Assembly: GCF_000153825.1 (NCBI RefSeq)
Contig: NZ_DS022299.1
Location: forward strand, 186,001 to 250,000
Direction: 5' to 3'
DNA from: Synechococcus sp. RS9916
GTDB lineage: Bacteria > Cyanobacteriota > Cyanobacteriia > PCC-6307 > Cyanobiaceae
Length of the DNA: 64,000 bases
Of this stretch, positions 30,753 through 34,535 are shown one piece after another. Both the position numbers and the translations under genes were made by a program. The stretch's first letter is position 1, and the number at the start of each line of letters is the position of its first letter. The notes beneath the pieces were generated by a model. It made no database searches and had not been told where the DNA came from. It saw only the letters and a list, made by a program, of their open reading frames with translations.

Positions 30753-31418
30753 TCAGAACTCAATACCGGCCTGAGCTTTGACGCCCTGTTCCCGGAAAGG
30801 GTGGTGGATCAGCGTCATTTCCGTGACCAGGTCGGCGCTCTCTACAAGGCTGGCGGGGGCCCCCCGACCGGTCACGGCCACATGGCAGAGCTCCGGCCGC
30901 TCGCGCAAGCCCTGGATCACGGTGTCGGCCTCGATGTAGCCCAGTTTCAAGGCCACGTTCAGCTCATCCAGCAGCACGAGTTTGTAAGTGCTGTCGCGCA
31001 GGTAGCCCAGGGCGGTCTGCCAGGCCTCCGCCACCAGCTGTTGATCGCGTTCGCGGTCTTGGGTTTCCCAGGTGAAGCCTTCCCCTAGGGCATGCCAGGC
31101 CACCTGGTCCCCGAAGGCCTTCAGGGCTCGGGCCTCGCCAGGCTCCCATCCTCCTTTGATGAACTGCACGATCGCCACCCGTTCGCCATGGCCGAGGGTG
31201 CGCAACACCAGTCCGAGACCGGCCGTGGTCTTGCCCTTGCCCTGGCCGGTGAACACCAGCACCAGACCCTTCTCCTTGTTGCGTTCCTCCACCCGCTGAC
31301 GCTGCACTTCCTGGCGGCGTTCCATCCGTTTGCGGTAGCCGCTGTCGTCGGTTTCGGGGGCGAGTTTGCCACCCATCCCCAGTTCAGCGGCTGCCTGATC
31401 GAGATTGTTGTTGCTCAT
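30753..31418 (-). CDS. cobO: Cob(I)alamin adenosyltransferase (CobO/BtuR type)
   Basis: Transfers adenosyl from ATP to the cobalt of corrinoids. The 221-residue product has a polar N-terminus, the modified P-loop LVFTGQGKGKTTAGLGLVLRTLGHG (ATP used in reversed orientation in this family) and VAIVQFIKGGWEPGEARAL. It also has YKLVLLDELNVALKLGYI (acidic Asp-Glu pair) and VAVTGRGAPASLVESADLVTEM. It overlaps the upstream methyltransferase stop by 4 bases (ATGA), so translation of the two is probably coupled. cobK at 7.9 kb belongs to the same pathway. Confidence 0.94.
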   Translation of the reverse strand: MSNNNLDQAAAELGMGGKLAPETDDSGYRKRMERRQEVQRQRVEERNKEKGLVLVFTGQGKGKTTAGLGLVLRTLGHGERVAIVQFIKGGWEPGEARALKAFGDQVAWHALGEGFTWETQDRERDQQLVAEAWQTALGYLRDSTYKLVLLDELNVALKLGYIEADTVIQGLRERPELCHVAVTGRGAPASLVESADLVTEMTLIHHPFREQGVKAQAGIEF

Positions 31419-32062
31419 GCAGTGACGGATGCGGTGGGACGGGAGGCGGTGATGCGCTGCAGGGCCTCCCCTGCCAGCAGCTCCTGCTCCACGGAACAGA
31501 AGCCAAGCTCCTGAAGCTGGGCGGGCAGGTTGTCCTCCAGCATGGCGAGGGCGGTGTTGGTTTCAAACAGGGCGCAGAACAGCTGCTGAGGAATGCGCAG
31601 CCAGGGCCCTGCCGGATGCAAATCCACCAGCACCAGCCAGCCACCTGGACGAAGCAGTCGCAGGCATTGACGCAACACAAGCTCCCGTTCCCGCCGCGGA
31701 AACTCGTGCAGAGCGACGCTCAGCTGAATGGCATCAAAGCTGCCGTTCTCCAGTGGCGGGTCCTCTGCCAGCCCTTCCACCCGTTGCATTCCGGGATGGC
31801 GTTTTTCCGCCAGTTCCAGAGCCAGTGGTGAGACATCCAGGCCAGTGACCTGGAATCCGGCATCGAGCCACGGTGCTGCCGCTTCGCCGCTGCCGCAGCA
31901 GAGATCGAGCACCGCGGCGCTGGGCTGGAGCCTGGAGCGCAAGGCGTCGACGCCCAGGCCTCGCAAGCGCTCCACGCCTCCCACACTGAGGGACGACACC
32001 GCCGTGACCGTGTCGTAGATCCAGCGGTAGCGGTAGGCCAGTGGCCTCAGAAAGGACGACAT
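31415..32062 (-). CDS. SAM-dependent class I methyltransferase
   Basis: 215 residues with a seven-strand methyltransferase fold. Motif I is VLDLCCGSGEAAAPWLDAG near residue 50, with the acidic motif II LDVSPLALELAEKRHP. GSFDAIQLSVALHEFP is the motif IV-type segment and LRPGGWLVLVDLHPAG motif VI-like. The sequence resembles ubiquinone/menaquinone-type C-methyltransferases (UbiE superfamily), but the substrate is unknown. It is coupled to cobO by a 4-base overlap and starts 4 bases after the recombinase stop. Confidence 0.87.
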   Translation of the reverse strand: MSSFLRPLAYRYRWIYDTVTAVSSLSVGGVERLRGLGVDALRSRLQPSAAVLDLCCGSGEAAAPWLDAGFQVTGLDVSPLALELAEKRHPGMQRVEGLAEDPPLENGSFDAIQLSVALHEFPRRERELVLRQCLRLLRPGGWLVLVDLHPAGPWLRIPQQLFCALFETNTALAMLEDNLPAQLQELGFCSVEQELLAGEALQRITASRPTASVTA

Positions 32063-32066
32063 TCAG

Positions 32067-33278
32067 TTAGGCCAGATGGCGGGCGAGGGCCGCATCCACC
32101 GCCTGTTGCTGGTCGCGACGGGTGATCCAGTGGTGGTAGGTGCGGGTGTGAATCGCAACGGAGTGGCCCATCATTCTCGCGGCCACCGTGTCGGGGAGGC
32201 CGATGTGAATTGTGCGCACAGCCCAGGCGTGCCGCAGGTCGTAAGGGGTGAGTGGCAGCTCATAACGGCGGAACTGCTCCGCAACCCGTCGCCCGACCTG
32301 CTGCAACGTTGTGTGACGCAGATCGGTGCAGACGTCTGGCAATAACCCCGGCTCCCGTCCGAGTTCGCCGAGGTGAAAGCGGTCCACCCATTCGGGGTGG
32401 AAAGGCCACACCTGGTGCTCTCCGGTTTTGGTGGTGGGGAGGACGCGCAGCACTTGATCGCTTCTGGGGGATAGGGCACTGAGGTCGGCAAAGAACACTT
32501 CGTGATTGCGCAGCCCATAGGTGGCCATCAGCCCGAAGGCAAGCCTCCATTTGGGGTTTGGGATCTTCAGCACTGCTTCCAGAATCTCCCCGTCACTGGG
32601 CAGTTGGCGGAACCGGGCGCGGTGCAGGCCATACCCCCCTGCTTCCGCGCGCCAGTTCTCCGGTAAGGCAATGTTCAGGTGCCGTGCCAGAGCCGCGAGG
32701 GTGGTGGCGCACTGCTGGCGGCTGCGACTGCCGTCGCTGTAGCTGCCGAGGGTGAGTGACAACAGCTCACTGCTGAGGGTGAGTTGGCGTTCGCTGCCGA
32801 TCGCTTCAAGCCGTCGCAGATATGGGCGATAGGCGGACGTCCAGGTGGTGCGACTTCCGGCGGGTGACCGACGACGCTGTGGGTCATTGAAGAAAGCCTG
32901 CTCGAAGCGTTCCAGTTCAGAGCGCAGCGGGGTGTTGGCGGTGGTGGTCTTGCCATGGCTGGAGGTGGCCGCTGGACCCTCTGAAGGGGGTTTCTCCGGT
33001 TCGCTAGGGCTCCATTGCGCCCAGTCGAACTGCTCCCGACGCAGCTGCAGATCCACCAGTTGCAGCAGTTGGCGCGCCTCCTCCAGCCCCGTCGCTGTGG
33101 CACTCACCCCAAGACTCAGTCGTTGGGTGCGGTTCTTCCCGGGAGTGGTGCGGCAGGGAAGGGGGCCGCGCAGATTGAGTCGACGCCCGCGTTGCTCGAG
33201 GCGGAGGCGGATGCCCTCCGCACTCAGAGAGGCATTGATAGCGGCTAGATCAGCACTGAGATCCACGCTCGCAGTCAT
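32067..33278 (-). CDS. Tyrosine recombinase (phage-integrase family), chromosomal
   Basis: 403 residues. Active-site residues are in order: Arg257 (ATYGLRNHE), Lys284 (PTTKTGE), the Arg of the HxxR box at 349 (PYDLRHAW, with Tyr346 where His is usual), His372 ([12 protein letters not shown]) and nucleophile Tyr381. The first 120 residues form an AP2-like arm and core-binding domain ([17 protein letters not shown] resembles arm-binding domains). No phage, tRNA, excisionase or direct repeats surround it. It sits tightly in a set of housekeeping genes, 4 bases from the methyltransferase gene, with base use like its neighbours. It may be a domesticated recombinase. Confidence 0.88.
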
Positions 33279-33359
33279 TGGGCTGCAGTCAGCACGATGG
33301 CGTCACCTTGGCGTCAATGGGGGTTACGCTCAAGCCCAATTTCTAAGAGCGGCTCTTCC

Positions 33360-34535
33360 ATGGCCCGGGTCGGCGTTCTTCTGCTCAATCTCGGAGGCCC
33401 GGAACGGATTCAGGATGTGGGGCCGTTCCTCTACAACCTGTTTGCGGATCCGGAGATCATCCGACTGCCGATTCCGGCTCTGCAGAAGCCTTTGGCTTGG
33501 TTGATCAGCACCCTGCGCAGCAGCAAGTCGCAGGAGGCCTACCGCTCGATTGGTGGCGGCTCACCTCTGCGCCGCATCACGGAACAGCAGGCTCGTGAGC
33601 TGCAAAGCGAGCTGCGCCAGCGCGGTATCGAAGCCACCTCTTATGTGGCGATGCGTTACTGGCATCCCTTCACGGAATCCGCTGTTGCCGACATCAAGGC
33701 GGATGGCATTGAGCAGGTGGTGGTCCTGCCCCTGTACCCCCACTTCTCCATCAGCACCAGCGGCTCCAGCTTCCGAGAGCTGCAGCGCCTTCGTCAGCTG
33801 GATTCCTCCTTCCAGCAACTTCCCCTTCGCTGCATTCGCAGCTGGTACGACCATCCTGGCTATGTGCGCTCGATGGCCGAGCTGATTGCGGAGGAGATTC
33901 GCGCCTCGGATGTTCCTGAAGAAGCACACGTCTTCTTCAGTGCCCATGGCGTTCCCAAGAGCTATGTGGAAGAAGCGGGTGATCCCTATCAACAGGAGAT
34001 CGAGGCCTGCACCGCGTTGATCATGAAGGAGCTGGAAACCATCCTTGGCTCCAGCAATCCCCACACCCTCGCCTACCAAAGTCGGGTGGGTCCGGTGGAG
34101 TGGCTGAAGCCTTACACCGAAGAAGCGCTCGAGGCACTGGGTGAAGCCAAAACCAGGGATCTGGTGGTGGTGCCGATCAGTTTTGTGAGCGAGCACATCG
34201 AGACCCTCGAGGAAATCGACATCGAATACCGCGAGCTGGCCACCGAGTCAGGTGTGGTCAATTTTCGCCGGGTGCGGGCTCTGGACACCTATGGCCCCTT
34301 CATCCAGGGCTTAGCCGACATGGTGGCGTCGAGCCTGGAGGGCCCGGAGGTCAATCTCGATCAGGCTGCCGAGTTGCCCAACACGGTGAAGCTGTATCCC
34401 CAGGAAAAATGGGAATGGGGCTGGAACAACAGCTCAGAGGTCTGGAATGGTCGCCTGGCGATGTTGGGCTTCTCCGCTTTCCTCCTGGAGCTGATTACCG
34501 GCCACGGTCCTCTGCATGCCCTCGGCCTGCTTTGA
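33360..34535 (+). CDS. hemH: Ferrochelatase with C-terminal chlorophyll-binding-type helix
   Basis: Inserts iron into protoporphyrin IX. From ATG 33360 the product is 391 residues. Core motifs are [24 protein letters not shown], the ferrochelatase signature around [20 protein letters not shown] (His ligand) and [23 protein letters not shown]. After a linker, residues about 350-391 form one hydrophobic helix carrying a light-harvesting-like motif ([19 protein letters not shown]). This CAB/high-light-inducible-like tail is established for cyanobacterial and plastid ferrochelatase II. It diverges from the recombinase gene. Confidence 0.96.

What the first reader, a model, noticed from the sequence alone, without database searches (positions are those of the whole stretch)
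32067..33278. Lone tyrosine recombinase that looks like a housekeeping gene
All catalytic positions are filled (with Tyr at the His position of HxxR), but no repeats, tRNA, excisionase or phage genes are nearby. It is locked between a methyltransferase gene and hemH, with base use like its neighbours. A domesticated role in chromosome or dimer resolution, or a control role in tetrapyrrole genes, is possible. An XerC/D-type function would be worth testing since cyanobacterial dimer resolution is poorly known.
Basis: partly seen in the sequence, partly recalled or inferred. Interest (0 to 1): 0.55.

Follow-up and report, generated by a model that had tools for sequence, protein, structure and literature searches.

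The report
Cyanobacterial chromosome-resolving recombinase and its site
A DNA-cutting-and-rejoining enzyme kept by nearly all well-sequenced relatives of marine Synechococcus and Prochlorococcus examined here, though it looks like a virus integrase, is probably a housekeeping enzyme that separates joined chromosome copies at a newly recognised DNA site near the replication terminus, a site that some phages also carry.

Summary
The gene is real (403 aa, minus strand): a three-domain tyrosine recombinase with a lambda-type arm-binding domain. It is present in 88 of 88 Cyanobiaceae genomes of the class sample (219 of 388 in the class), mostly divergent from hemH; its active site is invariant in 141 of 141 orthologues. 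It is not XerC/D by family models. The own genome has no FtsK match and no XerC/D-like match at the thresholds used.

Comparing terminus regions of three genomes exposed a candidate dif: GCGTACCTG-N9-CAGGTACGC, a co-varying inverted repeat. It occurs exactly once in each of 34 genomes found by pattern (0 control matches in 388), and in 61 of 88 with covariance models, but was not found in high-light Prochlorococcus. It lies 4-6 kb from the GC-skew maximum in two genomes, 106 kb in a third. One flank carries GTCCA direct repeats (56 of 57 loci), often at helical spacing, as expected of arm sites. The same composite pattern occurs in 68 viral stretches (0 for the reversed pattern) that encode no detectable relative of the enzyme.

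Best reading: a FtsK-independent single-recombinase dif system, probably exploited by phages. That the enzyme acts on this site is inferred, not shown.

The parts
32067..33278 (-). arm-domain tyrosine recombinase gene, 403 aa (P0001)
33009..33278 (-). N-terminal arm-binding-type domain, residues 1-90 (helix, three strands, helix)
   Evidence: AlphaFold2 model, pLDDT 80 in the first ten residues and 94-98 in the rest; weak Pfam Arm-DNA-bind_2 hits in 24 of 77 orthologues; R30, R37, Q52, R53 invariant in 77 of 77
32634..32930 (-). core-binding domain, about residues 117-215
   Evidence: most structural matches begin at about residue 111-123
32070..32594 (-). catalytic domain, about residues 229-403 (R257, K284, Y346, R349, H372, Y381)
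   Evidence: PF00589 E=1.4e-6; conservation
32136..32138 (-). codon of the predicted nucleophile Tyr381
   Evidence: invariant in 141 of 141 orthologues
33304..33333 (-). conserved block between recombinase and hemH (TTGAGCGTAACCCCCATTGACGCCAAGGTG), one copy in this genome at <=3 mismatches; most likely the recombinase promoter, not the recombination site
33360..34535 (+). hemH (ferrochelatase), divergent partner, conserved neighbour
   Evidence: immediately upstream and divergent in 129 of 141 orthologue loci
31415..32062 (-). methyltransferase-like gene downstream on the same strand (context only)
   Evidence: named by eye

Best explanation
The gene encodes a domesticated, vertically inherited tyrosine recombinase that resolves chromosome dimers in Cyanobiaceae without FtsK. 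Shown here: it is near-universal in the family, with an intact active site and a predicted arm-binding domain. A single-copy composite site exists near the replication terminus, made of a 9-9-9 inverted repeat (GCGTANCTG-N9-CAGNTACGC, arms co-varying) with, on one side only, usually two or more GTCCA direct repeats, most often spaced 11 or 21-23 bp, the nearest usually about 55 bp from the core. In this genome the core is C1:729669-729695, about 0.5 Mb outside the window. Inferred: two protomers bind the two core arms through the core-binding and catalytic domains and exchange strands within the centre by Tyr381 chemistry, while the arm domains bind the GTCCA repeats. This second set of contacts would supply the directionality and timing that FtsK supplies to XerCD, much as the accessory repeats of the TnpI/IRS resolution site of Tn4430 do (recalled). 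Also inferred: phages carrying the same composite site without a recombinase of this family use the host enzyme (IMEX-like).
For: Presence: 88 of 88 Cyanobiaceae in the class sample (genomes >=90% complete), 219 of 388 overall. Synteny: hemH divergent in 129 of 141 loci, including 11 of 21 outside Cyanobiaceae. Vertical descent: distance correlation with hemH r=0.90 over 77 loci; dN/dS 0.13 over 58 pairs; the orthologues with one viral row form a fully supported clade (SH-aLRT). Catalytic constraint 141/141. Arm domain (lambda Int aligned over residues 8-395). Only PF00589 match in 8 of 25 genomes; in two of these, G040 and G061, a search with the protein itself also finds no second relative and the site is present. 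FtsK gamma over cut-off in 0 of 20 genomes, FtsK motor in 1 of 20; own genome has neither. Site: found by comparing three 400-kb terminus regions without a query; exactly one copy in 34 of 34 matching genomes, none outside the family, 0 control matches in 388; 27 more genomes by covariance models; 34 of 57 cores are perfect 9/9 repeats in five different arm sequences; changes on both sides of a pair 34 cells versus 15.2 shuffled, 0 of 500 shuffles as high. Terminus: GC-skew maximum 6 kb away in G000 and 4 kb in G006. Arm repeats: 112 GTCCA in the flanking 100 bp versus 4 on the other side; 56 of 57 loci; spacing. Viral stretches with the composite pattern: 68 versus 0 for the reversed pattern, with no relative of the enzyme among 5,103 open frames of 116 stretches.
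Against: No experiment links protein and site; it is a co-occurrence inside one family, where nearly every genome has the gene, so presence or absence of the gene cannot be tested against the site. Other families that have the gene: first model, 3 of 23 genomes at E 0.002-0.01; broader model, 21 genomes, best E 0.027; not convincing. In an earlier scan of 91 genomes of the family, drafts included, 12 lacked a clear orthologue, two of them (G055, G078) over 90% complete. PF00589 misses some relatives (it missed the paralogue), and G006 has a second relative by protein search, so 'only tyrosine recombinase' holds for few genomes. In G020 the site lies 106 kb from the skew maximum; G074 and G054 have the site on the other side of the gene (arithmetic). 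The site keeps the same J-domain gene neighbour in 56 loci, so it is not shown to be independent of that gene. This genome's own GTCCA copies (-79, -63, -57, -41) do not show the 11/22-bp spacing. The pair counts lean on sites partly chosen by a model with that structure; on the pattern-chosen sites alone the excess is smaller (13 versus 7.8, 4 of 500). The gene is absent from 169 of 388 genomes of the class and only 31 of these have the 'Cyan' Xer-like protein searched for. The gene evolves faster than its neighbours (dN/dS 0.13 versus 0.044-0.05).
Confidence: 0.72

Rival explanations
1. The recombinase is a conserved housekeeping enzyme with a different job (for example plasmid, phage or rearrangement control), and the terminus element belongs to another system such as a fork trap, a nucleoid protein or another recombinase.
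For: Protein and site are linked only by co-occurrence and by matched anatomy; no recombination was observed. The gene lies about 0.2 of the genome away from the site (arithmetic), unlike XerS and XerH, which lie next to their sites (review PMC5357621, passages seen).
Against: The element has the anatomy of a tyrosine-recombinase target with arm sites, and in G040 and G061 this is the only relative found by two searches. Viral contigs carry the whole composite, which a fork trap would not predict.
Confidence: 0.16
2. The inverted repeat is an RNA hairpin or bidirectional terminator between convergent genes.
For: Compensatory changes; in G000 it lies between a J-domain gene and an apcF-like gene that converge (named by eye).
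Against: No Rfam match at E<=1 in five loci. It lies hundreds of bases from the neighbouring conserved open frames in most loci. Four of twelve pairs never vary in 43 sequences. GTCCA repeats lie on one side, often at helical spacing. The same composite occurs next to unrelated phage genes.
Confidence: 0.06
3. The terminus element is an attB kept by temperate phages with their own integrases, and the host gene is an old prophage integrase without a role there.
For: Relatives of the protein occur in viral contigs (38 loci, 26-47% identity), and viral contigs carry the site.
Against: The host site itself has arm repeats, which an attB normally lacks (recalled); gene and site are found in 88 and 61 of 88 genomes; none of 116 viral stretches carrying the core, nor the complete phage genome, encodes a relative by profile (positive control 46 loci); every genome matched by pattern has exactly one copy, so no lysogens were seen.
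Confidence: 0.05
4. The gene controls hemH or tetrapyrrole synthesis.
For: Divergent pair conserved across families with a conserved block in the short shared promoter region.
Against: Complete conservation of all six catalytic residues is not needed for a repressor; hemH was not seen beside the gene within the fetched flanks in 10 of the 21 non-Cyanobiaceae loci.
Confidence: 0.01

Closest known systems
Single-recombinase Xer systems: XerS/difSL, XerH/difH, archaeal XerA/dif, Legionella XerL/dif
   Same: one tyrosine recombinase; near-symmetric site near the terminus; XerA is described as independent of FtsK (PMC5357621, passages); XerL was likewise found in a group thought to lack Xer, through a mobile element carrying a dif mimic (PMC9765430, abstract)
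   Different: here the protein has an arm-binding domain and the site has a one-sided array of arm-like repeats; gene and site are far apart; XerS and XerH work with FtsK
Arm-binding-domain integrases (lambda Int, Tn1549/Tn916 type)
   Same: three-domain architecture; lambda Int aligns over residues 8-395; nearest sequence relatives outside the clade are viral or mobile-type
   Different: no mobile element around it, vertical inheritance, near-universal in the family
TnpI / IRS resolution module of Tn4430 (recalled; only a search listing was seen)
   Same: tyrosine recombinase whose core site is flanked on one side by direct repeats bound by the same protein to select resolution
   Different: transposon-borne; here chromosomal, near the replication terminus
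'Cyan' simple recombinase subgroup and slr0733-type XerC of cyanobacteria (PMC8138268 and PMC5101192, passages)
   Same: proposed stand-ins for Xer in cyanobacteria
   Different: simple two-domain proteins; the L163-type protein, which I take for this group from recall of its sequence, occurs in 41 of 388 genomes, 31 of them lacking the present gene
IMEX phages such as CTXphi (recalled; PMC5357621 passages)
   Same: element carries a dif mimic and no recombinase of its own
   Different: tailed phages with T7-like genes among them here; integration not observed

Membership tests
XerC/XerD recombinases | score over NCBIfam XerC/XerD/XerA/XerS equivalog or subfamily cut-offs | tested here: not met
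   best 17.1 bits against 267 (XerS); XerD 12.5 against 329.6
XerC/XerD recombinases | two-domain protein without arm-binding domain | tested here: not met
   additional N-terminal helix-strands-helix domain, residues 1-90
XerC/XerD recombinases | activation by FtsK (gamma domain) | tested here: not met
   FtsK_gamma over cut-off in 0 of 20 genomes (weak hits in 4); FtsK motor over cut-off in 1 of 20 (weaker in 2 more); none in own genome; controls over cut-off in 8 of 14
Tyrosine recombinases | R-K-(H/other)-R-H-Y active site | tested here: met
   R257 K284 Y346 R349 H372 Y381 in 141 of 141
Arm-binding-domain tyrosine recombinases | N-terminal arm-binding domain | tested here: met
   AlphaFold2 topology, weak PF12167 in 24 of 77, lambda Int alignment 8-395 (rmsd 19, probably because domains are oriented differently)
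Arm-binding-domain tyrosine recombinases | carried by a mobile element | tested here: not met
   conserved core locus; no match at 1e-5 in 50,697 phage records
Single-recombinase dif systems | one symmetric site per chromosome near the terminus | tested here: met
   34 of 34 genomes with exactly one pattern match; 61 of 88 in all; skew tested in 3 genomes only: 6, 4 and 106 kb from the maximum
Single-recombinase dif systems | site next to the recombinase gene (XerS, XerH hallmark) | tested here: not met
   gene and site about 0.18-0.22 of the genome apart in eight genomes (arithmetic)
Single-recombinase dif systems | recombinase recombines the site; mutants form dimers and filaments | not testable with these tools
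   needs bench work
IMEX | element without recombinase carries a dif mimic | tested here: met
   68 viral stretches with the composite pattern; no relative of the enzyme by profile at E<=10 in 116 stretches or in the complete phage AP013539, which has the core and two GTCCA copies at other distances. Other kinds of recombinase were sought only by Pfam in 9 proteins of that phage, none found, and the 116 stretches are mostly parts of contigs
IMEX | integration at host dif | tested here: inconclusive
   no host neighbour gene among 116 viral stretches; no host genome with two sites by pattern

The most novel reading that the evidence does not exclude
Cyanobiaceae resolve chromosome dimers with a domesticated integrase that carries its own topological control: arm domains bind one-sided GTCCA repeats, phased to the helix, next to a symmetric core near the terminus, so that no FtsK pump is needed. 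T7-like and other phages, presumably of these cyanobacteria, carry copies of the whole composite site and integrate, or resolve their genomes, with the host enzyme.
Probability: 0.5. Interest if true: 0.92.

Novelty: new variant of a known kind. Interest (0 to 1): 0.85.

Why it matters
How cyanobacteria resolve chromosome dimers is an open question: dif prediction failed in all five cyanobacteria tried (PMC3025954, passages), xerC is called rare in the phylum (PMC5101192, passages), and FtsK is mostly missing (PMC7766704 passages). This work names a concrete enzyme and a concrete site in very abundant ocean phototrophs. It also goes against the view that arm-binding domains mark mobile elements (PMC8138268, passages), and suggests that T7-like phages, often thought of as lytic, may use the host's chromosome-resolution enzyme.

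Tried and rejected
The recombinase-hemH intergenic block was first considered as the recombination site. It is conserved and single-copy at <=3 mismatches in 7 of the 9 genomes searched (no match in the other 2), but it reads as a -35 box with a 17-bp spacer and a weak -10, it lies mid-replichore (about 28-33% of the genome from the origin here, 29% in G173), its halves match as an inverted repeat only with a 1-bp gap, and its pattern was not found in viral contigs. Rejected as dif; kept as a likely promoter.

XerC/D in the same genomes: NF001399 at E<=1e-10 matched 77 of 149 genomes, only one over the cut-off, and not the own genome. Several hits in Cyanobiaceae read to me like integron-type integrases (by eye). 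Complementarity with the 'Cyan' Xer-like protein is partial: 41 of 388 genomes have it, 10 of these also have the present gene (overlap counted by hand). Two of the 219 genomes counted as having the gene, G176 and G315, score near the paralogue range (1.4e-67, 4.0e-63).

High-light Prochlorococcus: no site with either model; palindromes in the sampled stretches of G173 gave nothing convincing. Other families: hits in G120, G171 and G204 are weak, and at several places in the first two; S. elongatus-like genomes gave 15-16 bits. Not claimed.

Named phages: three queries from phage sites found no second record with a similar site among 50,697; a chance-level hit (E=8) led to the uncultured phage AP013539. 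That phage's GTCCA copies lie at -42 and -70, not -55 (read), so it is not one of the 68 composite matches. Plasmids: nothing relevant. In the structural second look, families not listed are not excluded. Literature: ten searches; the core sequence string is in no paper of that library, which lacks most subscription journals.

Rows dropped: 10 of 151 relatives (under 290 bits) were treated as paralogues; 8 of 141 orthologues lacked a clear start and 77 of the remaining 133 were kept at under 80% identity. Of the 34 pattern sites 30 were fetched; A3 used 19 of those 30 plus 24 others; the three hits outside the family (L379, L384, L387) were left out of A3 and of the flank counts. Viral flank counts used 62 of 68 stretches. 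The tree is a quick search with several long branches. The profile search printed no hit table because of my own output filter; it was repeated with a positive control, and only that is used.

Full report
What was checked. The finding's open reading frame is real, but on the minus strand (33278 down to 32067, 403 aa). Pfam recognises a tyrosine recombinase catalytic domain (PF00589, E=1.4e-6). XerC/D, XerA and XerS models score far below their cut-offs. The best phage family is a general integrase group (5e-13). The window has no tRNA, and base composition matches the neighbours.

Distribution and descent. The class sample held 388 genomes at least 90% complete. A match at E<=1e-60 is present in 219 of them, including all 88 of the window's own family. 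I take this family to be Cyanobiaceae from the named Synechococcus, Prochlorococcus and Cyanobium loci. In an earlier scan of 91 genomes of the family, drafts included, 79 had a clear orthologue; of the 12 without, two (G055, G078) are over 90% complete drafts. The gene is kept in genomes of 1.6-1.7 Mb. It lies next to and divergent from hemH in 129 of 141 loci, including 11 of 21 loci from other families. Pairwise distances correlate with those of hemH (r=0.90, 77 loci), and dN/dS is 0.13 over 58 pairs, against 0.044-0.05 for hemH, pyrH and ilvB. In a quick tree of 73 rows the orthologues form a fully supported clade with one divergent phage copy inside; around it lie viral and paralogous rows. 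This looks like an old capture of a mobile integrase that became a core gene; the direction of capture is inferred, because the tree is unrooted.

The protein. All six catalytic residues are invariant in 141 of 141 orthologues, so catalysis, not only DNA binding, is under selection. The Tyr at the usual His position is a family trait. A high-confidence model (mean pLDDT 91) shows a lambda-type three-domain protein: an N-terminal helix-three strands-helix domain (residues 1-90), a flexible linker, a core-binding domain and a catalytic domain. Structural relatives are XerA, XerH, IntI, Cre and lambda Int; full-length lambda Int aligns over residues 8-395. Pfam's arm-binding family is matched weakly by 24 of 77 orthologues.

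No ordinary Xer machinery. The own genome has no match to the XerC/D model at E<=1e-10, no FtsK motor match at E<=0.001 and no FtsK gamma match at E<=0.1. Over cut-off, the motor was found in 1 and the gamma domain in 0 of 20 cyanobacteria; each was over cut-off in 8 of 14 control genomes. In 8 of 25 genomes scanned for PF00589 the gene studied here is the only match. That scan is not exhaustive: it missed the paralogue of this genome, and G006, one of the eight, has a second relative by protein search.

Finding the site. Sampled GC skew placed the origin of this genome between 2.0 and 2.13 Mb and the terminus roughly opposite; the gene itself lies about 28-33% of the genome from the origin here and 29% from dnaN in G173. 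I then compared 400 kb around the expected terminus of three Synechococcus-type genomes, masking coding sequence. Only four non-coding elements were conserved at 23 of 29 bases or better in all three. Two are tRNA genes by their sequence, one is an unexplained element (G000:C1:560960), and one is an inverted repeat with diverged surroundings, G000:C1:729659-729705. Its core is GCGTACCTG CTGTAGACA CAGATACGC. It lies 6 kb from the cumulative GC-skew maximum in G000, 4 kb in G006 and 106 kb in G020 (the maximum was sought only within the 400 kb). In G000 it is 0.48-0.52 of the genome from the sampled skew minimum (arithmetic).

The site is a family with one copy per chromosome. The pattern with up to three mismatches hits 34 of 388 genomes, each exactly once, all in the family; the control pattern hits none of 388. 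Covariance models add 23 genomes at E<=0.01, then G085 at E=0.11 and G424, G033 and G068 (G068 at 0.011); these last four have the same J-domain neighbour. That makes 61 of 88. The arms change in step: C/G, T/A and A/T pairs at one position and two further compensated variants, 34 of 57 cores being perfect 9/9 repeats. Changes on both sides number 34 cells against 15.2 in shuffles, 13 against 7.8 on the pattern-chosen sites alone. The 9-bp centre varies. The site lies 0.18-0.22 of the genome from the recombinase gene, on the same side, in G000, G006, G020, G085, G061, G040, G033 and G068, and on the other side in G074 and G054 (arithmetic).

Arm repeats. Orienting 57 loci by the neighbouring J-domain gene, GTCCA occurs 112 times in the 100 bp on one side of the core, 6 times in the next 150 bp and 4 times in 100 bp on the other side; 56 of 57 loci have it within 40-110 bp. 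47 of 57 loci have two or more copies, and the nearest starts at -55 to -57 in 49. Spacings are 11 bp (20 cases), 21-23 bp (19 cases) and others (5-6 bp nine times, 15-16 bp four times, 12, 20, 33 and 42 bp once each); this genome's own four copies have spacings of 16, 6 and 16. Between repeats and core lie a conserved A-run near -31 and T-run near -10. This is what one would expect for arm-type sites read by an arm-binding domain. The domain was seen in the protein model before the repeats were found in the DNA.

Phages. The composite pattern (GTCCA, 48-54 bases, core) occurs in 68 stretches of viral contigs; the same pattern reversed occurs in none. Of the 116 stretches fetched, 66 hold a large-terminase-like frame and 31 a ThyX-like frame, both named by eye. 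A profile of the recombinase finds no match at E<=10 among their 5,103 open frames, while it finds 46 loci in a positive-control set; the host neighbour genes are absent too. Of 62 viral sites with enough flank, 58 have two or more GTCCA, 138 copies on the repeat side against 3 on the other; the pattern itself forces one copy each. Of 45 stretches chosen by core alone, 11 have two or more. A complete annotated genome, uncultured phage MedDCM-OCT-S28-C3 (AP013539, Autographiviridae), has the core in a gap beside its T7-type terminase gene, with two GTCCA copies at other distances, and no relative of the recombinase by profile; Pfam found no integrase in nine of its proteins. Exploitation of the host enzyme is the simplest reading; the phages' hosts are not known, and integration was not seen, since every host genome matched by pattern has one site.

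How it most likely works. Shown: protein anatomy and conservation, the site, its repeats, its near-terminal position in three genomes, its viral copies. Inferred: the protein binds and recombines the site; the arm repeats select resolution of dimers and replace FtsK. The main weaknesses are that co-occurrence cannot be tested inside a family where nearly every genome has the gene, that high-light Prochlorococcus has the gene but no detected site, and that other families with the gene gave no convincing site.

Comparison with what is known. It works like a single-recombinase Xer/dif system (XerS, XerH, XerA, XerL; PMC5357621 passages, PMC9765430 abstract), but it is not a member of XerC/D by models, domain content or FtsK partnership. 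By architecture it is an arm-domain recombinase, yet not mobile, against the trend described in PMC8138268 (passages). I saw no paper describing this system in the listings, and the core sequence is in no paper of the library.

Noticed in passing
L191:2947-3861 (IMG/VR 3300044701_002647): A phage carries a relative that falls inside the orthologue clade but lacks the arm domain and the Lys284, Tyr346 and His372 positions (read by eye); it sits beside helicase-like and nuclease-like genes. It could be a dominant-negative inhibitor of the host enzyme.
   Followed up: partly
window 33304-33333: Strongly conserved 30-bp block in the short (mostly 57-85 bp) recombinase-hemH gap of many marine Synechococcus and Prochlorococcus; probably overlapping divergent promoters.
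   Followed up: partly
G000:C1:560960-561006: Another conserved non-coding element in three terminus regions, upstream of an open frame; unexplained.
   Followed up: no
G000:C1:57208, 806111 (L002), 2101903, 2480806: Four further tyrosine recombinase genes in this genome (three PF00589 matches, one paralogue at 34%), probably on mobile elements.
   Followed up: no
L162, L164, L165, L166: XerC/D-model hits in Cyanobiaceae that read to me like integron-type integrases.
   Followed up: no
G118:C1:2296845-2297123: A genome of family f26 with only a broken piece of the gene (stop inside); other genomes of that genus keep an intact copy.
   Followed up: no
G055 and G078: Two draft genomes of the family, 95 and 94% complete, without a clear orthologue; assembly gap or true loss not resolved.
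   Followed up: no
L152: In G147 a true XerC-like gene (the only one over the model cut-off) lies next to a hemC-like gene; possible contamination.
   Followed up: no
G143: One genome has 14 XerC/D-model matches, five of them of nearly equal score.
   Followed up: no
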